From a virus, in the IMG/VR virus record IMGVR_UViG_3300050821_007613, positions 1-26,412 of that record: a DNA stretch of 26,412 nucleotides; one strand, given 5' to 3'. Under the pieces are notes generated by a model. That model did not search any database and was not told the origin of the DNA. It was given only the letters and a program-made list of their open reading frames with translations. Below, in pieces: positions 1,304 to 8,539 of this stretch; the stretch's first letter is position 1, and each line of letters begins with the position of its first letter. Both the position numbers and the translations under genes were made by a program.

Positions 1304-2232
1304 CCTGCGACATATGCCCCGAGACGGCAACCGTGGTACGGCCAGCCACGCGCCATCGTGAGGAGGCGCGTTACTGCAGGTATGACGCGGGTAGGTATCT
1401 GGGTTGGCAAGACACATACCACAAGATAGAACCGGGCGAATCACAGGAAGGAACGGGCGTGAACATCCTGAGTGAAGACGAGGCGCGGCGTGAACTCAAG
1501 CAGCACTGGGGATTGGCCCCAGACATTGCCAGCAACGTGCTGCGCATAGCCAGGGAGTTCCGGGTCACCGCTGAACCAGTTGACGGCGGGTACGTCACGG
1601 TGACCCTGGTTAACAATAACAGCTTCACGATCGAGCGCGGCAAAAAAGAAGGGGCGGAATCCCGCCAGAGCGTAGCGCGGCGCACTGCGGCCCCGTATAC
1701 TAGGGCTGCGACAAAACCCCGACCGGCCGTCAGCCGGTCGGCCAGAACAACTACACCCGCACAGGGAAGGACGAAAGCAATGGCAACGAAGGCAGCTGAG
1801 CCCGAGGTCGAAGAGACCGAGGATGCCGCACCGGACTACACCGGATACGCCACCAAGCAGCCCACCGCGACCATGACGGACTTCGCGGACTGGCTGCTCG
1901 AGGAAGGCGCGGTCGCCGAGGACGCGGTCAAGAACGAAGCGCTGGAGCACGCGTTCCGTGAGGGCGTCCGCCTGGGCGGCACCCTGCGCATGGAGTTCCA
2001 GCGGTCCGATTTCAACGTGACCCGGCGCGAGGAGCGGAAGGCAGCCCGCGAGGCGGCAGCTGCAGCCGAGCCCGAGGAGGAAGAGGCCCCGGCCAAGGCC
2101 CCGGCCCGGGGTGGGCGTGGCAAGGCGACTGCGGCCAAGCCGGCCACCACGGCGGCCAAGCCCGCTGCGGCCAAGGCTCCGGCCCGTGGCCGGCGCGGCA
2201 AGGCTGCGGCCACGGCAGCGGCTCCCTACTAG
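1300..2232 (+). CDS. Zn-finger / basic-tail putative DNA-binding protein with internal starts
   Basis: Function not recognised. The 310-codon frame has three distinct parts: an N-terminal Cys-rich stretch (CDIC, then a later Cys), a middle alpha/beta segment beginning VNILSEDEARREL, and a C-terminal part beginning MATKAAEPEVEET that ends in an acidic patch and a histone-H1-like Ala/Lys/Pro tail with GGRGK and GRRGK, suggesting DNA contact. The ATG at 1300 overlaps the helicase stop (ATGA) but has no clear ribosome site of its own. Two in-frame internal starts have good ones: GTG 1459 behind AGGAAGGA and ATG 1780 behind GGGAAGG. A 7-bp hairpin (1721-1739) lies just before ATG 1780. Either one long protein with a disordered linker or nested products is possible; no stop separates the parts. 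Confidence 0.65.
   Translation: MTCDICPETATVVRPATRHREEARYCRYDAGRYLGWQDTYHKIEPGESQEGTGVNILSEDEARRELKQHWGLAPDIASNVLRIAREFRVTAEPVDGGYVTVTLVNNNSFTIERGKKEGAESRQSVARRTAAPYTRAATKPRPAVSRSARTTTPAQGRTKAMATKAAEPEVEETEDAAPDYTGYATKQPTATMTDFADWLLEEGAVAEDAVKNEALEHAFREGVRLGGTLRMEFQRSDFNVTRREERKAAREAAAAAEPEEEEAPAKAPARGGRGKATAAKPATTAAKPAAAKAPARGRRGKAAATAAAPY
1721..1739 (+). other. 7-bp hairpin inside the 1300-2232 reading frame
   Basis: GACCGGC - CGTCA - GCCGGTC forms a perfect 7-bp stem with a 5-nt loop. There is no T-tract after it, so it is not a clear intrinsic terminator. It precedes the strong ribosome site and ATG at 1780, and makes 1690-1780 look like an intergenic region although the frame stays open. 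Confidence 0.5.
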
Positions 2233-2243
2233 GCCGCTACTAG

Positions 2244-2253
2244 CCCTGAGCGG
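2244..2253 (+). repeat. CCCTGAGCGG motif, copy 1
   Basis: The ten-base CCCTGAGCGG occurs three times in the window, each within about 15 nt after a stop codon on the plus strand and directly before a stem (here the terminator stem that starts at 2254). The other copies are at 6925-6934 and 7627-7636. Confidence 0.7.
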
Positions 2254-2288
2254 AAGGAGCCTCACCCCAGCTAGGGGTGGGGCTCCTT
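2254..2288 (+). terminator. Strong intrinsic-terminator-like hairpin
   Basis: A 15-bp stem: AAGGAGCC (2254-2261) pairs with GGCTCCTT (2281-2288), CACCCC (2263-2268) with GGGGTG (2274-2279), and T2262 opposite G2280 is a wobble. The loop is AGCTA, followed by GCTTTAG, a short T-run. It sits 21 nt after the stop of the basic-tail gene and probably ends the upstream transcript. Confidence 0.75.
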
Positions 2289-2312
2289 GCTTTAGATGGA
2301 CGAGCGAAGTCG

Positions 2313-2390
2313 GCGCGAACGCGGTAGGATAGCTAGGTCCGGCTCGGGCTGGCACCTCGACCTCAAGGCTGGTGCCTCGACTCGAGCCGG
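2313..2390 (+). promoter_or_regulatory. Structured leader before the 48-aa gene
   Basis: After the terminator lies GCGCGAACGCGGTAGGAT (2313-2330), whose TAGGAT fits an actinobacterial -10 box, although no convincing -35 is visible. A stem-loop follows: CCGGCTCG (2339-2346) pairs perfectly with CGAGCCGG (2383-2390), with inner GGCACC (2351-2356) pairing with GGTGCC (2371-2376). The ribosome site AGGGAAGGG and GTG start follow 20-30 nt later. A GCGC-GAA-GCGC-AAGGAT relative occurs at 7657-7675. Promoter or RNA leader is inference. Confidence 0.45.
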
Positions 2391-2421
2391 GCTCACCGGG
2401 CGAACAGGGAAGGGTCATGCT

Positions 2422-2568
2422 GTGAGCAAAGCCAGCATCTTTGAGGAGTGGGCGGAGTCCCACGGAGCACGGGCCGAGGTCATACAGCCGGAAGAAGGCA
2501 ACGGGTATACCGTCTTCGAGTTGGCCATCGCTAACCAGCCCTTGATCGAAGTGACGGTCACCGAATGA
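2422..2568 (+). CDS. Small hypothetical protein (48 aa)
   Basis: Function not recognised. The protein is acidic, starts VSKASIFEEWAES and ends IEVTVTE, with no motif I can name. The GTG at 2422 is chosen because AGGGAAGGG lies about 8 nt upstream; the frame extends further upstream only through the structured leader. An ATG at 2417 is followed at once by a stop in another frame (ATG CTG TGA). The stop overlaps the following nuclease start as ATGA, so it is probably co-translated with the nuclease. Confidence 0.72.
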   Translation: MSKASIFEEWAESHGARAEVIQPEEGNGYTVFELAIANQPLIEVTVTE

Positions 2569-3605
2569 AGGGCGTCTCTGACAAGGAGGCCCAAGCGCTC
2601 CTTGATCGCGAGCTGAACATACCCGTCTTCGGAACTAGTGAGCGTTCCTGCTTCCGGCGCTGCCCTCAGAAGTGGTGGTGGACCTACCGTATGGGTCTGG
2701 TGCCCAAGGGGGATCACCCGGACGCGCTCTGGTTCGGGATCGGCATCCACGAGGCGCTGGCTCAGTGGTACGGCAAGGGGTTCAATCGTAGCAAGGTGCA
2801 TCCGGCTGACTACTTCCTTGACTGGTGTGGTGATGAAGAACGGGTAATTCGCCGCAGCAAGGAATCTTGGGAGCTAGAGGACGGCCCCAAGTTCGAGGAT
2901 GCAAAGTTGCTCGGGCAGGCTATGCTGGAGCAGTACATAGACGAGTACGGAAGGGACCAGGACTGGGAGGTACTGGCGGTAGAACACCCGTTCATCATCA
3001 AGGTGGTACGGGACGGTGTGCCGCTCGCCTACTTCGCTAGCACCTGGGATGGAGTGTACCGGGACGCTAACGATGGCCTGGTATACCTGATGGAACACAA
3101 GACGGCCGCTCAGATCATGCTAGCCTATCTGGAACTCGACGACCAGGGCGGAACGTACTGGGCGGTGGCCGACAGCATCTGCAGGGGGAATGGCTGGATC
3201 AGCCCGCGTGAGCACCTGGCAGGTATCACCTACAACTTCCTTCGCAAGCAGTTCCCTGACGATCGTCCACAGGACGACCAGGGCAACTATCTGAACAAGG
3301 ACGGCACGATCAGCAAGCGGCAGCCTGCCCCGTACTTTGTACGGCACATTGTTGACCGCAGCCCCAAGGAGCACGCCTCCCAGATGAACCGTATGGCCGA
3401 CGAGGTCGCCTGGATGAATGCTGTCCGTTCGGGTGAGTTGCCGGTTATCAAGAACACCACTAGGGACTGTACCTTCTGTCCCTTCTTTGACATGTGCAAG
3501 CTGCACGAGCGGGGCGGGGATGCCTGGATTGAATTCAAGGATGCAAGGTTTGACCAGCGTGACCCGTACGAACGCCACGAACTACTTCGCAAGAGTGCAT
3601 CTTGA
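2565..3605 (+). CDS. PD-(D/E)XK nuclease, Cas4/RecB-like, with Fe-S cysteines
   Basis: A 346-aa exonuclease-type protein of the RecB/Cas4 fold, expected to resect DNA ends for phage recombination or replication. The active-site set is visible: GIGIHEAL with H62, D162 in STWDGVY, and E177-x-K179 in LMEHKTA. Four cysteines in the classic Fe-S arrangement of Cas4/AddB nucleases are present: C33 in RRCPQKW near the N-terminus and C302, C305, C311 in CTFCPFFDMC near the C-terminus. The pattern of a nuclease wrapped by a cluster joining both ends is well known in this family. The ATG overlaps the previous stop (ATGA). Neighbours (helicase, Sak4-like ATPase, SSB-like protein) suggest a recombination operon rather than CRISPR adaptation; there is no cas1 or array. 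Confidence 0.88.
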   Translation: MKGVSDKEAQALLDRELNIPVFGTSERSCFRRCPQKWWWTYRMGLVPKGDHPDALWFGIGIHEALAQWYGKGFNRSKVHPADYFLDWCGDEERVIRRSKESWELEDGPKFEDAKLLGQAMLEQYIDEYGRDQDWEVLAVEHPFIIKVVRDGVPLAYFASTWDGVYRDANDGLVYLMEHKTAAQIMLAYLELDDQGGTYWAVADSICRGNGWISPREHLAGITYNFLRKQFPDDRPQDDQGNYLNKDGTISKRQPAPYFVRHIVDRSPKEHASQMNRMADEVAWMNAVRSGELPVIKNTTRDCTFCPFFDMCKLHERGGDAWIEFKDARFDQRDPYERHELLRKSAS

Positions 3606-3613
3606 CGCACCGC

Positions 3614-3862
3614 ATGACCAACGAAGAATGGGCCGCTGAGCTACGTAGCCAGGGGGCCATTCTCTGCAGCCGAGGCACCCCTACCGAGCATGACCTGCTA
3701 GCTGTTGAAGAGTTCATGGACATACTGAGGAGCAAGAGTGGCGACAAGAGCACCCTCCCGTCGGGCAGCACGGACGACCGCGCCCAAGCGCCGCAGCGCC
3801 AAGCAGGACCGGGAGGACCCCGAGAGCCTAGAGGCAAACATCCCAGAGATCGAGATCGCTGA
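3614..3862 (+). CDS. Small hypothetical protein overlapping the ATPase gene by ~125 nt
   Basis: Function not recognised. The first ~45 residues (MTNEEWAAELRSQG...EFMDILRSK) look like a normal helical protein, whereas the last ~35 residues are low-complexity Pro/Arg/Gly and lie over the start of the ATPase gene in another frame. A TTG at 3602 would overlap the nuclease stop (TTGA) and is an alternative start; neither start has an obvious ribosome site. The 125-nt same-strand overlap is unusual for this window. A frameshift or a shorter true product is possible. Confidence 0.55.
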   Translation: MTNEEWAAELRSQGAILCSRGTPTEHDLLAVEEFMDILRSKSGDKSTLPSGSTDDRAQAPQRQAGPGGPREPRGKHPRDRDR

Positions 3863-4598
3863 TCTTGAAACGTTTAGCGAATCGACCAACATCCTCTTGT
3901 ACGGGCCGGCAGGGCACGGTAAGACCGTGCTCGCAGGCGGGGCACGACGTGCCACCTACATGAGTACCGAGAAAGGCGTCGTAGCGGCTAGGCGGGTAGG
4001 CCACACGGCCAAGCTGATGCGTACGCCCACCTGGGAGCACTGTCTGGCCGCCATGAATATGGCGGACAAGCAATTGGGCCCCGAGGACTGGCTTATTTGC
4101 GACAGCGGCACCAAGATGCAGATCATGTATTACCGCTGGATCCTGAAGACCATCAAGGAGTCCAAGCCTAACCGGGACCTTGACATCGCTGCTATCCAGG
4201 ATCACCAAAAGTGGCAGAAGGGCTTCCAGCGCTTTGTGGACCATATGATCGACGCGCCGTACAACCTGATCATGGTAGCCACCCCCATGACCCGGGAGGA
4301 CGAGGACGGTGACGACGCCGTCATTCCCCACTTTGAGGGCAAGGGAAGGACCATCAGCGACTACATCAGCGCCCAGTTCGACGTCGTGCTGTACTATGCG
4401 GTCAGCAAGATCGCTAGCGACAAGGCCGGTGAGACGATACGCCGCGCACTAGCTCAGCCGCACCCCGACCTGCCATACATCGCCAAGGACCGCTTCCAGG
4501 CTCTCGGTGAGTACTGGGAGGTAGGCCCGGGTAACTACTGGGCTATGGCCGAGATGATAGAGGCCATCGACGAAAGCATGGAAACCGATGCTGCCTGA
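3738..4598 (+). CDS. Sak4-like RecA-fold ATPase (putative single-strand annealing recombinase)
   Basis: A 286-aa P-loop NTPase. The Walker A motif GPAGHGKT is at residues 56-63 and the Walker B-like WLICD at 118-122. The size, the short basic N-terminal extension (Arg/Lys-rich residues 5-22) and the neighbours fit phage Sak4-type ATPases, RecA-related proteins that work with an SSB in annealing-type recombination. The start is GTG 3738, set by GAGGAGC 5 nt upstream. It lies between a Cas4-like nuclease and, further down, an SSB-like protein, which fits a recombination cassette. The ATPase fold is clear; the Sak4 assignment is inferred from size and context. Confidence 0.78.
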   Translation: MATRAPSRRAARTTAPKRRSAKQDREDPESLEANIPEIEIADLETFSESTNILLYGPAGHGKTVLAGGARRATYMSTEKGVVAARRVGHTAKLMRTPTWEHCLAAMNMADKQLGPEDWLICDSGTKMQIMYYRWILKTIKESKPNRDLDIAAIQDHQKWQKGFQRFVDHMIDAPYNLIMVATPMTREDEDGDDAVIPHFEGKGRTISDYISAQFDVVLYYAVSKIASDKAGETIRRALAQPHPDLPYIAKDRFQALGEYWEVGPGNYWAMAEMIEAIDESMETDAA

Positions 4599-4920
4599 AC
4601 CGCAGCGGTACTCCGTCTGGATGGAGGTGCCCGAGGAGCTGTTTCATGATGCTGGCGTGGACAAGAGCCAGATGGCCATCGAACAGTTCGACAGGTGCAT
4701 AGCTTCCCAGGGCATACGGAAGCATTCTCCGTGGGAACTTACCTGGATGGAATCCATTCCCATGAGGATACCCATCGACTATCCGTGGCACAAAGAGGTG
4801 GCGTTCTTCCTTGCTCGCCTCTTCGGGTACCGACCAGAACGATTCATTATTGACCGCATGTGGGGATGTAGAGGAACTACCCTTGCTACAGAGATTGGGA
4901 AGGATTCTGATGGGGAGTAG
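4588..4920 (+). CDS. Hypothetical protein (110 aa)
   Basis: Function not recognised. A Trp- and Pro-containing protein beginning MLPEPQRYSVWMEVPEE, with no cysteine pair, P-loop or membrane segment. The ATG at 4588 overlaps the ATPase stop by about 10 nt; a later ATG at 4621 is an alternative. The end overlaps the next start. Position suggests a co-expressed accessory of the recombination module, but nothing in the sequence shows its job. Confidence 0.68.
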   Translation: MLPEPQRYSVWMEVPEELFHDAGVDKSQMAIEQFDRCIASQGIRKHSPWELTWMESIPMRIPIDYPWHKEVAFFLARLFGYRPERFIIDRMWGCRGTTLATEIGKDSDGE

Positions 4921-5380
4921 GCACACCGGCGTACGGGTCAGGAAGATGCCGCCGGATCAGGGATCACCGCACGGAGAGGTGCAGCAGAACAAGGGTCCCA
5001 AGCTGGTCGTGTTCGACGACGCAGCTGAGGCGCTGTACCAGGTATGGTGCGCAGCCCTGGACTACAAGGGGCCACTGGGTCGGCCGCTGAAACTGTGGCA
5101 CGAGCTAGCCAACAAGGAACGCCGTGCCTGGCGGTTCGTCCTGGAGCAGATCCGTCTGCAGCTGAAGGTCCGGGATCTCCTGCTGGTCAGGAAGCCCGGC
5201 CCGAACCAGTTCACTATCGTGACCTGCGGGCAGGACACCTGGGCGGCTCGGGTAGCTGACATCACCTCCATGAAGTCCATCAACGATCTGCGAAAGCTGC
5301 TGCACGAGATGGACCTACAGCTTGCTCTCCAGGACGAAGAGGTCCGGAACAAGGAAGTCCCCGAGGTGCGCAATGCTTGA
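4910..5380 (+). CDS. Hypothetical protein (156 aa)
   Basis: Function not recognised. It starts MGSRHTGVRVRKMPPDQ and has an alpha/beta core followed by a helical, charged C-terminus (DLRKLLHEMDLQLALQDEEVRNK) that may form a coiled coil. ATG 4910 is chosen over the longer upstream frame because GGGAAGG lies 6 nt before it and the start overlaps the previous stop; the extra upstream residues would lie wholly inside the preceding gene. No membrane segment or catalytic motif is evident. Confidence 0.68.
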   Translation: MGSRHTGVRVRKMPPDQGSPHGEVQQNKGPKLVVFDDAAEALYQVWCAALDYKGPLGRPLKLWHELANKERRAWRFVLEQIRLQLKVRDLLLVRKPGPNQFTIVTCGQDTWAARVADITSMKSINDLRKLLHEMDLQLALQDEEVRNKEVPEVRNA

Positions 5381-5804
5381 TGGCGAAGTCAAGGTCATAG
5401 CCAAGAATGACTTCTACTTCTCGTTCGATGGGCTGGGGATCGTCATCGGCAAGAAGATGAATGGCCGCATCCATATCCTGCGCATCGATGGCGAAGGCTA
5501 CGCTCGCTGGGACAGGCAAGAGGACGACACGGCTACCGTACCCGGCCACACTTTCATCCTGCCAAGCGAAGTACTGCTACCGTTGCTGGACGCCCTGACC
5601 TCACACTACAAGGGGGCCAGCGATGTACGTGACCTACGGGAATTCCTGGCGCACGAGAGTAGGCGGCGTGATAGCGCCGAGGATGCTCTCCGGCAGATAG
5701 CCCTTGCCGGCGCGACGGGCAATCTCGCCAACCTGCTGGGATCCGTACGCCCCAGGACAACCCCTGTAAGTCAGGAGGATGCCAAAGCCCAGGACCACCT
5801 TTAG
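5373..5804 (+). CDS. Hypothetical protein (143 aa)
   Basis: Function not recognised. The N-terminal half is beta-rich (VKVIAKNDFYFSFDG, IHILRIDGEGYARWD) and the C-terminal half helical (LLPLLDALTSHY, REFLAHESRRRDSAEDALRQIALAG), compatible with a small two-part regulatory or binding protein. ATG 5373 overlaps the previous stop and has GAGGTG 5 nt upstream; the longer frame starting at 5322 lies inside the preceding gene and is not preferred. Confidence 0.68.
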   Translation: MLDGEVKVIAKNDFYFSFDGLGIVIGKKMNGRIHILRIDGEGYARWDRQEDDTATVPGHTFILPSEVLLPLLDALTSHYKGASDVRDLREFLAHESRRRDSAEDALRQIALAGATGNLANLLGSVRPRTTPVSQEDAKAQDHL

Positions 5805-5806
5805 CT

Positions 5807-6016
5807 ATGGAAGACTTCCTAATGCGTTTCTTCGGAGGCACCCTCGGGGGCGCTGACGTGATCGTGACGGAACAGCAGTTCCCGTGGCCGCTACCCGGTA
5901 TAATTCCGGACATAGGCGGGCACTACTTCAAGAAGTCAGAAAGTGACCTGCCACCACAGAACCCGGGCAGTCACATAATGCGCAGCGCTGAATACCACTG
6001 GTGCGCTGCTACCTGA
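5807..6016 (+). CDS. Small hypothetical protein (69 aa)
   Basis: Function not recognised. It starts MEDFLMRFFGGTLGG immediately after the preceding stop, with AGGA about 11 nt upstream. It contains aromatic and Pro-rich stretches (QQFPWPLPGIIPDIGG) and a single Cys near the end. It may be real because it fills the gap between two genes of the same operon, but support is limited to position and start signal. Confidence 0.55.
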   Translation: MEDFLMRFFGGTLGGADVIVTEQQFPWPLPGIIPDIGGHYFKKSESDLPPQNPGSHIMRSAEYHWCAAT

Positions 6017-6026
6017 AGGGAAGGCA

Positions 6027-6917
6027 ATGCCCAAGCTCAAAATCACCGATGACGACCTGGACGTCGAAGAGCTCGAGAACGCCGAAGTCAACGAACGCGA
6101 CTATGAGCCCTACGAAGGCCCAGAGCCGCCGAAGGGGACCATTCTCGCCGGGTATGTCAAGCGCCTGTACTGGACGTACACCCAGAACGACGACCCCATG
6201 CTCAAGGTCCTGTTCATAGCATCCGACAACACCGGAACGAAGGCCAAGTTCAACGGATGGGCCAGCTGGGACAACATCGCCATCACCGCTCCGGCCAAGT
6301 TCCGCTGGAAGCCGTTCCTCGACGCCTACGGGCTGACCATCCGGGACGTCAAGACCAAGACGATGGTAGAGGCGGACGCTGAAGGCAACATGGGCGACCC
6401 CATCATCTCCATAGCCAAGTGGAAGCCGGGCGAGGAGCAGGACGGTGCCTGGGCCCGCATCGTGGTCAAGGTGGAACGCGGCGAGTATGCCGGTTCCAAG
6501 ATCGACACATGGCTGGAGTACGCCGAGCCGGAGGATGCCGACGAGGAAGATCCAGAAGACGAGGAAGAGCCAGAAGACGAGGAAGAGCCAGAAGACGAGA
6601 CCGAGGACGAGACCGAGGACGAGACCGAGGACGAGACCGAGGACGAAGAGCCAGAAGACGGCGAAGACGAGGAAGAAGAGGACGAGCCGGCAACCCCAAA
6701 GCGCGGCGCGGTCCGGCGTACTTCTACCCCGGCTCCGGCCCGTGGGGCGAAGGCGGGTTCCGCCAAGCCCGCTAGGGCTGCCGCTACGGCTCGGAGCAAG
6801 CCCGCCGCTACCGCTACCCGGCGCAGTACGGCTAAGCCCGCTGCGACAACCCGGGCCACAGCCCGTGCGACACGCGGCCGCAGCAAGGCCGGCAAGGACG
6901 ACGACCCGCCGTTCTAG
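6027..6917 (+). CDS. SSB-like ssDNA-binding protein with acidic repeats and DDDPPF tip
   Basis: A 296-aa protein with four parts: a beta-rich N-terminal domain (about residues 30-165, with GTILAGYVKRLYW and FNGWASWDNIAITA) that looks like an OB-fold as in phage ssDNA-binding proteins; a very acidic Glu/Asp/Pro/Thr repeat region (about 168-228); a basic Ala/Arg/Lys/Thr tail; and the terminal hexapeptide DDDPPF. Bacterial SSBs end in a DDDIPF-type tip that docks partner proteins, so this end is a strong functional hint. ATG 6027 follows GGGAAGG by about 5 nt. The neighbours (helicase, nuclease, Sak4-like ATPase) fit an SSB role. The OB-fold is inferred from pattern only. Confidence 0.7.
   Translation: MPKLKITDDDLDVEELENAEVNERDYEPYEGPEPPKGTILAGYVKRLYWTYTQNDDPMLKVLFIASDNTGTKAKFNGWASWDNIAITAPAKFRWKPFLDAYGLTIRDVKTKTMVEADAEGNMGDPIISIAKWKPGEEQDGAWARIVVKVERGEYAGSKIDTWLEYAEPEDADEEDPEDEEEPEDEEEPEDETEDETEDETEDETEDEEPEDGEDEEEEDEPATPKRGAVRRTSTPAPARGAKAGSAKPARAAATARSKPAATATRRSTAKPAATTRATARATRGRSKAGKDDDPPF
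6543..6659 (+). repeat. In-frame tandem repeats coding for acidic region
   Basis: Three 18-bp units GAGGAAGAGCCAGAAGAC (6543-6560 with one change, 6561-6578, 6579-6596) are followed by four exact 12-bp units GAGACCGAGGAC (6597-6644) and a partial first-type unit (6645-6659). All lengths are multiples of three, so copy-number change would keep the frame. They encode E-E-P-E-D and E-T-E-D repeats of the SSB-like protein. Confidence 0.9.
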
Positions 6918-6919
6918 GC

Positions 6920-7005
6920 CCATCCCCTGAGCGGACCAGCCCGGACGCGGGAAATAGCGGCCAACACAAGCGCTTGCGGATCGGGCTGGTCCCCCGAGGG
7001 GATGG
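6920..7005 (+). ncRNA. Long stem-loop element before secreted-protein gene (copy 2)
   Basis: It begins 3 nt after the SSB-like stop. Outer stem CCATCCCC (6920-6927) pairs with GGGGATGG (6998-7005); inner stem GGACCAGCCCG (6933-6943) pairs perfectly with CGGGCTGGTCC (6982-6992). The asymmetric internal loop carries the repeated CCCTGAGCGG motif (6925-6934), and the apical loop contains TAGCG...AAGCGC...GGAT. No T-run follows, so it is not a plain terminator; the ribosome site AAGGAGGC follows about 17 nt later. A closely similar layout is at 7623-7713. RNA or DNA function is unknown. Confidence 0.6.
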
Positions 7006-7030
7006 ACCCCTCAACAAGAAGGAGGCATCT

Positions 7031-7621
7031 ATGATGCGGATCCCCGGAGCAAGGCGTGGTTTCCTGCTCCTGATCAGCGCCGTGGCGGCGATCGGGCTGC
7101 CGCTCGGTGTCATGACAGCGCCGGCCAGTGCGGCTGCTACCCACCCGGTCGGCGTCGTCGCCAAGAACGCCCCGCGCGTGGTCACCAACCCGGCTGGGTT
7201 CAAGCCTGACCGATTCGCGGAGTCCGACGCGTCCTCGGACCTGATGTGCCTTACCGCCAACACCAATGAGTGCTGGACCACCCAGGGTGCTGGCAATCAG
7301 ATCCAGGACACAATCGGAGGCACCGGGTTCAACCTGACCGCCGTCACCAGTACCAGCGGGTACTACAAGATCCACGTCAACAACTCGCAGAACTGCATCA
7401 CATCCAGCGGTAACGAGGTCGTCTCGTCCGCGTGCGCGACGGGCGCGGAGAACCAGTGGTGGGGTGCCGGCACGGACGGCGGCCCTGGCTGCCTGTTCTC
7501 GACGTTCAACGACGGGACGGACCGGGCCACCGTGTTCAACACCGACAACAAGCCGGTATGGTACGAGAACAACGGTTCGGCCCTGTTCAACTGGAGCACC
7601 GGTCTCTGGTCCGGCTGCTAG
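7031..7621 (+). CDS. Secreted Cys-rich protein, possibly beta-trefoil/ricin-B-like
   Basis: A 196-aa exported protein. Residues 1-35 form a textbook Sec signal peptide (Arg-rich start, LLLISAVAAIGLPLGV core, A-x-A cleavage near PASAA). The mature part has six cysteines (73, 81, 122, 135, 154, 196), an even number suited to disulfides outside the cell. Segments such as MCLTANTNEC and the spaced Cys...Cys...NQWW at 122-144 recall the Cys and Q-x-W pattern of ricin-B-like lectin repeats; this is a resemblance, not a firm call. ATG 7031 is chosen for AAGGAGGC upstream; the longer frame runs through the stem-loop. It is flanked by long hairpin elements on both sides, like a moron gene. Role (surface binding, exclusion, host interaction) is unknown. 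Confidence 0.72.
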   Translation: MMRIPGARRGFLLLISAVAAIGLPLGVMTAPASAAATHPVGVVAKNAPRVVTNPAGFKPDRFAESDASSDLMCLTANTNECWTTQGAGNQIQDTIGGTGFNLTAVTSTSGYYKIHVNNSQNCITSSGNEVVSSACATGAENQWWGAGTDGGPGCLFSTFNDGTDRATVFNTDNKPVWYENNGSALFNWSTGLWSGC

Positions 7622-7622
7622 C

Positions 7623-7713
7623 CCTTCCCTGAGCGGGCCAGCCAAGCCGTGGAGTAGCGCCGAAAGCGCAAGGATGATGGCCCGAGCCGTCGGCTTGGCT
7701 GGCCCCCTGAAGG
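7623..7713 (+). ncRNA. Long stem-loop element before oxidoreductase gene (copy 3)
   Basis: It starts just after the TAG stop at 7619-7621. Outer CCTTC (7623-7627) pairs with GAAGG (7709-7713); inner GGGCCAGCCAAGCCG (7635-7649) pairs perfectly over 15 bp with 7691-7705. CCCTGAGCGG (7627-7636) occupies the internal loop, as in copy 2. The apical loop contains GCGCCGAAAGCGCAAGGAT (7657-7675), a small GCGC/GCGC hairpin. The ribosome site GAAGGAGAG and ATG 7739 follow. The stem sequences differ from copy 2 while pairing is kept, which is covariation-like. Confidence 0.62.
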
Positions 7714-7738
7714 TAGGAACCCGGGCGAAGGAGAGAAC

Positions 7739-8539
7739 ATGGACGTAGCGGTTATTGGCGCTGGCCCTGCCGGGCTAGCGGCCGCACACGCGGCTACCGG
7801 ACAGGGTGCAAGCGTGGTGATATACGCGCCTAAGCGGAAGACGCCGCAGAATGGCCCATTGCTGATGCAGCGGCCCATACCCGGAGTCAACCAGGGTCAC
7901 CCCGATGGGACGATTCAGCAGATCGTCATCAACGGCACGATCCTCGGGTACCGCTACAAGCTATACGGAGACATCAACATCGGCATCAACGGTGACCAGC
8001 TGAAGCCTAGCTATCACGCCTGGCGTCACAAGGAGACCTACGGGACACTGTGGAATATGTACCATGGGTTGATAGAGGACCGTATGGTGCTGCCACAAGA
8101 ACTCATGCACATGGACAACGAGTTCGATCTGGTAGTTTGTACGGCCAACATCCAGAACCTATGCCTAAGCCGGAACTCCGGGCTCCAGGCTTACCAGCAC
8201 CACTTCAACTTCAAAGCCGTGGCTGTCACAAACCGAGCAGAGTACCCGGATCAGCCGTACAACACGATCATATTCAATGCGGGCGAGAATGACCTCTGGG
8301 TGCGTAGCAGCAACGTGTTCGGGGTGACTTGTACCGAGTGGCCGCTGGAGCACGCTCCGGCCGGATCCCGGATTATTCAGAAGCCCATCAGCACGGACTG
8401 CAACTGTTTCTCGCGCGTGCTGCGTACCGGCCGGTTCGGAAGGTTCGAGAATGAGGTATGGGTAGACACCGCATACTACGATGTTTGGGGAGCCCTGGAG
8501 AGCATGAAGCGTCAGGGCGAACTAGACCACATCAAGTGA
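7739..8539 (+). CDS. Rossmann-fold (FAD/NAD-binding) oxidoreductase-like protein
   Basis: A 266-aa cytoplasmic protein starting MDVAVIGAGPAGLAAAH, a canonical dinucleotide-binding GxGxxG motif (residues 7-12). The second strand ends VVIYAPK, lacking the acidic residue that usually binds the adenosine ribose. EFDLVVCTAN (about 128-137) resembles the second, downstream dinucleotide motif of flavoproteins. GRFGRFENEVWVDTAYYDV near the end resembles C-terminal flavin-contact segments of some FAD enzymes. It is short for a complete flavoenzyme. GAAGGAGAG sets the start. It lies directly upstream of the flavin-dependent thymidylate synthase gene, so a redox partner role is conceivable, but the substrate is unknown. 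Confidence 0.72.
   Translation: MDVAVIGAGPAGLAAAHAATGQGASVVIYAPKRKTPQNGPLLMQRPIPGVNQGHPDGTIQQIVINGTILGYRYKLYGDINIGINGDQLKPSYHAWRHKETYGTLWNMYHGLIEDRMVLPQELMHMDNEFDLVVCTANIQNLCLSRNSGLQAYQHHFNFKAVAVTNRAEYPDQPYNTIIFNAGENDLWVRSSNVFGVTCTEWPLEHAPAGSRIIQKPISTDCNCFSRVLRTGRFGRFENEVWVDTAYYDVWGALESMKRQGELDHIK

What the first reader, a model, noticed from the sequence alone, without database searches (positions are those of the whole stretch)
2244..7713. Three related stem-loop elements with a shared CCCTGAGCGG motif, each between a stop and the next start
Exact CCCTGAGCGG occurs at 2244, 6925 and 7627, each shortly after a stop codon. At 6920-7005 and 7623-7713 it sits in an asymmetric internal loop between an outer stem (8 and 5 bp) and a long inner stem (11 and 15 bp). 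Inner stems differ in sequence yet pair perfectly. The loops share TAGCG...GCGC...GGAT, and copy 1 has a related GCGC-GAA-GCG...TAGGAT before its own 8-bp stem. Copies 2 and 3 lack T-tracts. This recalls, without matching, the start-associated inverted repeats of some mycobacteriophages, and could be a phage RNA leader, protein-binding site or processing site.
Basis: partly seen in the sequence, partly recalled or inferred. Interest (0 to 1): 0.68.

Follow-up and report, generated by a model that had tools for sequence, protein, structure and literature searches.

The report
Conserved hairpin RNA between phage genes
Two of the three hairpins belong to an apparently undescribed family of structured RNA that many actinobacterial phages, including cultured Streptomyces phages, place a few bases after the stop codon of one gene and before the next, which points to a shared switch or cutting site in phage messenger RNA.

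Summary
The three CCCTGAGCGG copies are real. Copies 2 (6918-7005) and 3 (7622-7718) are one element: an outer stem, a fixed core 5'-UGAGCG/3'-AGYCCC (U-A, G.G mismatch, A-U, G-C, C.C mismatch), a perfect inner stem and a variable loop. Copy 1 (2244-2293) shares only the decamer; it is a T-tailed terminator-like hairpin followed by a promoter-like box.

The element is not local. A covariance model recovered it in about 20 uncultured phage contigs and in five cultured Streptomyces phages (phiRKBJ001, Wentworth, Dryad, Rooney, PHTowN). Over 24 aligned copies, 16 of 21 pairs change on both sides and 91% of cells pair (at most 56% when slid). Over 39 copies the G.G mismatch is kept in 37, and the fourth core pair is A-U in 27, G-C in 12 and nothing else. 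In 34 of 39, the core lies 3-14 nt after a sense-strand stop codon (2 of 39 antisense; 7.6% of random positions). Nothing in Rfam 15 matches.

Membership in a real RNA family is well supported. Its function is inferred. I favour an intercistronic mRNA-processing site working like T7 RNase III sites (about 0.4), over translational coupling, U-less termination or an operator.

The parts
6915..6917 (+). TAG stop of the upstream gene (SSB-like protein with acidic ...DDDPPF tail, 6027-6917)
6920..6927 (+). element 2 (W2): outer stem, 5' strand CCATCCCC
   Evidence: pairs 8/8 with 6998-7005
6928..6933 (+). W2 core, 5' side TGAGCG
6933..6944 (+). W2 inner stem, 5' arm
   Evidence: 12 pairs
6945..6980 (+). 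W2 variable loop (36 nt)
6981..6992 (+). W2 inner stem, 3' arm
6993..6997 (+). W2 core, 3' side CCCGA (G.G and C.C mismatches opposite 6929 and 6932)
6998..7005 (+). W2 outer stem, 3' strand
7016..7033 (+). Shine-Dalgarno AAGAAGGAGG and ATG (7031) of the secreted, weakly ricin-B-lectin-like protein 7031-7621
7619..7621 (+). TAG stop of the secreted protein gene
7623..7629 (+). element 3 (W3): outer stem, 5' strand CCTTCCC
   Evidence: 5 of 7 pair with 7711-7717
7630..7635 (+). W3 core, 5' side TGAGCG
7635..7649 (+). W3 inner stem, 5' arm (15 pairs)
7650..7690 (+). W3 variable loop (41 nt)
7691..7705 (+). W3 inner stem, 3' arm
7706..7710 (+). W3 core, 3' side CCTGA
7711..7717 (+). W3 outer stem, 3' strand AGGTAGG
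7728..7741 (+). Shine-Dalgarno AAGGAG and ATG (7739) of the FAD-dependent oxidoreductase-like gene
2244..2293 (+). copy 1: shared decamer followed by a 15-pair, 5-nt-loop hairpin and GCTTT tail; terminator-like, not a member of the family
   Evidence: absent
2325..2330 (+). TAGGAT, -10-like box after copy 1 (read by eye)
   Evidence: sequence; not scored by the consensus scan

Best explanation
W2 and W3 are members of a family of cis-acting structured RNA in actinobacterial phages that occupies the boundary between two cistrons of one transcript. Shown: the helix is maintained by compensatory change, a fixed core (UGAR with YUGA: G.G and C.C mismatches in register) sits between outer and inner stems, the loop is free to vary, the sense strand is used, and the core starts 3-14 nt after the upstream stop. 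Inferred: the long helix, with its mismatched core, is recognised as double-stranded RNA and cut or trimmed there, most likely by the host RNase III, so that each polycistronic phage transcript is divided into units with a hairpin-protected 3' end upstream and a free ribosome-binding site downstream, as at the T7 early-region sites. In roughly half of the copies the outer 3' strand overlaps the next Shine-Dalgarno sequence, so cutting, or a ribosome terminating at the upstream stop, would also expose it.
For: Covariation on 24 copies: 16 of 21 pairs change on both sides, 91% paired against 29-56% when slid, 0 of 500 shuffles as high; same result on the first 8 copies. G.G mismatch in 37 of 39, U-A beside it in 38 of 39, fourth pair A-U 27 / G-C 12. 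Sense-strand stop 3-14 nt before the core in 34 of 39, against 2 of 39 antisense and 7.6% of random positions. Conserved U.G wobble at one inner pair (24 of 39) with A.C only once there favours RNA of the sense strand. No T tract after W2 or W3. In many copies the next start codon lies 9-30 nt after the core, leaving no room for a promoter. Loop-independent recognition of a helix of about 20 bp or more is what a dsRNA endonuclease needs; [quoted passage not shown]
Against: No RNA data. RNase III shows limited sequence specificity, whereas here a short sequence core is strongly kept, which suits a specific RNA-binding protein as well. The mismatches are symmetric, not the 4/5-nt asymmetric loop of R1.1. 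About half of the copies do not overlap the Shine-Dalgarno sequence. L146 carries several hairpins in tandem, which a single cut site does not need.
Confidence: 0.4

Rival explanations
1. Translational coupling or Shine-Dalgarno occlusion: the outer stem hides the next ribosome-binding site, and the ribosome that terminates a few nt upstream opens it, tying expression of the second gene to the first.
For: Tight 3-14 nt spacing from the stop; the Shine-Dalgarno sequence overlaps the outer 3' strand in 16 of 35 copies by a rough scan, clearest in phiRKBJ001, Dryad, Rooney, PHTowN, L148 and G019a; some 5' outer strands read CCUCC, like the 16S anti-Shine-Dalgarno.
Against: More than half of the copies, W2 and W3 among them, have the Shine-Dalgarno sequence beyond the outer stem. 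Coupling needs no conserved G.G/C.C core or 11-15 bp inner stem.
Confidence: 0.2
2. Factor-independent terminator or attenuator without a U tail, ending or thinning transcription after each gene.
For: Strong GC-rich hairpins straight after stop codons. U-less terminators are reported for Streptomyces and for actinophage phiC31 (cited in PMC8355165). Copy 1, sharing the decamer, does look like a terminator.
Against: No U tract. Next start codons lie too close for a promoter in many copies, so full termination would silence the next gene. Loops up to 97 nt and a conserved core inside the helix are not terminator features. phiC31's own inverted repeats do not match the model (best E 0.11).
Confidence: 0.2
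3. Operator for a specific RNA-binding protein of phage or host (translational repressor or antitermination factor), which reads the UGAR/YUGA core.
For: The core sequence is kept while stems and loops change; several copies per genome in the same orientation.
Against: No shared protein was identified: the DnaE and FAD-protein genes of the window's group are missing from most of the other carriers. Flanking genes differ widely.
Confidence: 0.12
4. DNA-level site, such as a cassette-exchange or attC-like recombination site that travels with each gene.
For: Elements recur gene by gene (W2-gene-W3; three in 2 kb in G016; three in 3 kb in G018; tandem in L146), often around secreted-protein genes.
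Against: Orientation is fixed to the sense strand. The conserved wobble is U.G on the sense strand and would be A.C on the other. No integron-type RYYYAAC/GTTRRRY ends by inspection.
Confidence: 0.08

Closest known systems
RNase III processing sites of phage T7 early mRNA (R1.1 type)
   Same: Repeated intercistronic stem-internal loop-stem elements between a stop and the next ribosome-binding site of a polycistronic phage transcript (PMC6121014, PMC4858673).
   Different: R1.1 has an asymmetric 4/5-nt loop; here the core is two symmetric mismatches with conserved sequence. Host, phages and sequence are unrelated, and cleavage is untested.
Start-associated sequences with inverted repeats (SAS/ESAS) of cluster K mycobacteriophages
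   Same: Multi-copy, one orientation, non-structural gene region, inverted repeat with variable spacer near starts (PMC3203893).
   Different: ESAS are imperfect 17-bp repeats with spacers mostly 4-13 bp next to the 13-bp GGGATAGGAGCCC at the start; here the anchor is the upstream stop, the core is UGAR/YUGA, loops reach 97 nt and there is no 13-mer.
U-less terminators of actinophage phiC31
   Same: Actinophage, intercistronic GC-rich inverted repeats without a U tail (Ingham et al. 1995, known here only from the reference list of PMC8355165).
   Different: phiC31 hairpins read AAGCCCC...GGGGCTT and do not match model R2.
Integron attC sites
   Same: Folded site 3' of each gene, conserved ends, variable centre (general knowledge).
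   Different: attC works as bottom-strand DNA with RYYYAAC/GTTRRRY ends; neither is seen here.

Membership tests
One structured-RNA family (W2, W3 and relatives) | helix kept by compensatory change | tested here: met
   16 of 21 pairs change on both sides; 91% paired against 56% or less when slid
One structured-RNA family (W2, W3 and relatives) | fixed core UGAR/YUGA with G.G mismatch | tested here: met
   37 of 39 keep G.G; TGAG/CTGA gives 10 hits against a mean of 0.155 and at most 3 for 400 random 4-mer pairs
One structured-RNA family (W2, W3 and relatives) | W2 found by a model that did not contain it | tested here: met
   W2 is in neither seed: R1 E 2.4e-6, R2 E 4.5e-5. W3 is a seed of both models, so its score is not independent
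One structured-RNA family (W2, W3 and relatives) | copy 1 (2244) belongs too | tested here: not met
   no match at E up to 10 or 0.1
Any Rfam 15 family | match above or near a gathering score | tested here: not met
RNase III processing site | long intercistronic helix with internal loop | tested here: met
RNase III processing site | cleavage by RNase III | not testable with these tools
   needs RNA ends or a biochemical assay
Intrinsic terminator (classical) | U tract after the stem | tested here: not met
   none at W2 or W3; the 10 nt after the inner stem are G/A-rich over 39 copies
SAS/ESAS of cluster K mycobacteriophages | 13-mer GGGATAGGAGCCC 3-7 bp before the start | tested here: not met
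   not present between W2 or W3 and the next start in the sequence read; definition
phiC31-type U-less terminator | sequence and structure relationship | tested here: not met
   phiC31 best model E 0.11; hairpins differ
Integron attC | RYYYAAC ... GTTRRRY ends, IntI-dependent, bottom strand | tested here: not met
   ends checked by eye on the listed copies; recombinase not searched

The most novel reading that the evidence does not exclude
A modular expression system of actinophages: single genes, often secreted lectin-like cargo, are strung together with one dedicated RNA element at each boundary, read by a conserved factor through the UGAR/YUGA core, so that genes can be gained as gene-plus-element units and still be individually processed and translated.
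Probability: 0.15. Interest if true: 0.85.

Novelty: new variant of a known kind. Interest (0 to 1): 0.66.

Why it matters
It appears to be an undescribed RNA family, shared by phages of different lineages and present in cultured Streptomyces phages, so its function can be tested at the bench now. It gives phage annotators a searchable mark of cistron boundaries, and it would show either that actinophages divide their transcripts the way T7 does or that they use a new recognition motif. The G.G/C.C core kept inside otherwise drifting stems is an unusual constraint that asks for a binding partner.

Tried and rejected
Exact decamer as the family mark: an IMG/VR scan with CCCTGAGCG...CCCTGAAG (capped) gave only the window and one relative with a hairpin. 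Kink-turn reading of the CUGA boxes: considered, but the bulge-free G.G register pairs better in most copies (reasoning on the sequences). Stop-codon readthrough: the frame after the stop stays open through the element in 15 of 36, not a clear signal; no null was computed. Bacterial chromosome copies: of the GTDB pattern hits, the best (Arthrobacter, E 7.7e-6) appears by eye to lie inside a coding gene on the other strand, and the whole genome gave nothing at E <= 0.01; treated as chance. This shows that E near 1e-5 is not decisive when sites were preselected by motif. L008's hairpin: lacks the 3' core. Cultured phages Yara, Wollypog, RikSengupta, KandZ and phiC31: no element. SSB-like, Sak4-like and secreted-protein searches for more relatives found nothing useful. 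No paper describing the element was found.

Full report
OBSERVATION. CCCTGAGCGG occurs exactly at 2244, 6925 and 7627, all on the + strand; about 0.16 exact copies are expected in the window on both strands. Each is followed by a strong hairpin. Copies 2 and 3 fold far better than shuffles (z -5.2 and -4.9) and have long loops. Copy 1 has a 5-nt loop and a GCTTT tail, lacks the 3' partner of the motif, and is followed by a TAGGAT box; it is best read as a terminator followed by a promoter and is not counted below.

RELATIVES. The window is a 26.4 kb IMG/VR virus fragment, with gene order like Streptomyces phage Yara: helicase, Cas4-like exonuclease, RecA/Sak4-like, SSB-like, FAD oxidoreductase, DnaE. 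Two protein queries brought in relatives. Among their hairpins of 11 or more pairs, CTGAG is the most enriched 5-mer in the 5' flank (7 against 0.47 expected). A descriptor, TGAG + stem + CTGA with an outer stem in register, found a group well separated from background: 10 hits in the relatives against a mean of 0.155 and at most 3 for 400 random 4-mer pairs.

MODEL. Eight copies gave covariance model R1; 14 of 22 pairs change on both sides, 88.6% of cells pair, at most 53% when the partner is slid. R1 then found W2, which was not in the seed (E 2.4e-6), plus new copies in other phages. In cultured Streptomyces phages phiRKBJ001, Wentworth, Dryad, Rooney and PHTowN it found one copy each (E 4e-8 to 5e-6), filling the gap between a TerD-domain gene and a DUF7239 gene. 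A degenerate pattern scan of IMG/VR followed by R1 added about ten more phages, several with two to four copies. The common form there is CUGAACGUCCUGCUCGG...CCGAGCAGGGCCUUGAGG; the window's UGAGCG/CCCUGA is the compensated variant.

FAMILY. Twenty-four copies gave R2: 16 of 21 pairs with change on both sides, 91% paired, 0 of 500 shuffles as high, sliding drops to 29-56%. These copies were chosen by structure and motif, so part of the pairing is by selection; the compensatory A-U/G-C change inside the core (27/12, no exceptions), the outer stem and the spacing below were not all selection criteria. Over 39 copies the G.G mismatch is kept in 37, C.C in 28, and the flanking U-A in 38. Most other carriers lack the window's DnaE and FAD genes, so the element crosses phage lineages. 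Rfam 15 has no match.

POSITION. In 34 of 39 copies an open frame ends 3-14 nt before the core on the same strand; only 2 of 39 do so antisense, and 7.6% of random positions. The distance to the next start varies from about 9 to 85 nt; in 16 of 35 the likely Shine-Dalgarno sequence overlaps the outer 3' strand (rough start calls). Many neighbours are secreted proteins, a few with weak ricin-lectin resemblance, as in the window. Copies follow one another gene by gene in W, G014, G016, G017 and G018, and L146 has four hairpins in a row, only one of which (3310-3385) the model reports.

MECHANISM. Shown: a sense-strand structured RNA at cistron ends with a fixed core. Inferred: what reads it. A long helix with free loop fits a double-strand-specific nuclease, and the anatomy and position resemble T7's RNase III sites. 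Classical termination is disfavoured by the absent U tract and close downstream starts, but U-less termination is claimed for actinobacteria and stays open. Coupling suits the copies with an occluded Shine-Dalgarno sequence. A specific binding protein suits the kept core. The probabilities given are judgement, not computed.

LIMITS. Start codons and ORFs were called by simple rules; E-values come from short calibrations; the search covers only loaded records; W3 is a seed of both models. No expression data were available.

Noticed in passing
L005 3429-3480, L006 4023-4064, L016 1786-1829, L144 8040-8069: A second hairpin style in other relatives: 5' flank CTAGACC and/or 3' flank CATTTCTAG or similar (CATTT is 9 against 0.16 expected in 3' flanks), often also with a short outer stem. 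Probably terminators.
   Followed up: partly
L146 3134-3372: Four hairpins in tandem between the SSB-like and FAD genes, with CCCCGAGC and CCCTGAGC as linkers; stems of hairpins 2 and 4 are nearly the same sequence and could pair with each other.
   Followed up: partly
window 7031-7621: Secreted protein of 196 aa flanked by elements W2 and W3, with weak ricin-B-lectin similarity below Pfam's cut-off; similar secreted genes sit beside elements in G008, G016, G018, G014 and L243.
   Followed up: partly
window 1719-1741: Strong hairpin CCGACCGGC...GCCGGTCGG after a TATACT box at about 1698; on the - strand it is followed by GGTTTTG and scored as terminator-like.
   Followed up: no
window 6540-6680: Long acidic repeat (EDETEDE...) in the SSB-like protein before its DDDPPF end; the relatives share the acidic and Lys/Ala-rich tail at varying length.
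   Followed up: no
G005 37591-38502, G006 1409-1462: Clusters of GTAGTCGAC palindromes repeated many times in intergenic DNA of two relatives, unlike the element studied here.
   Followed up: no
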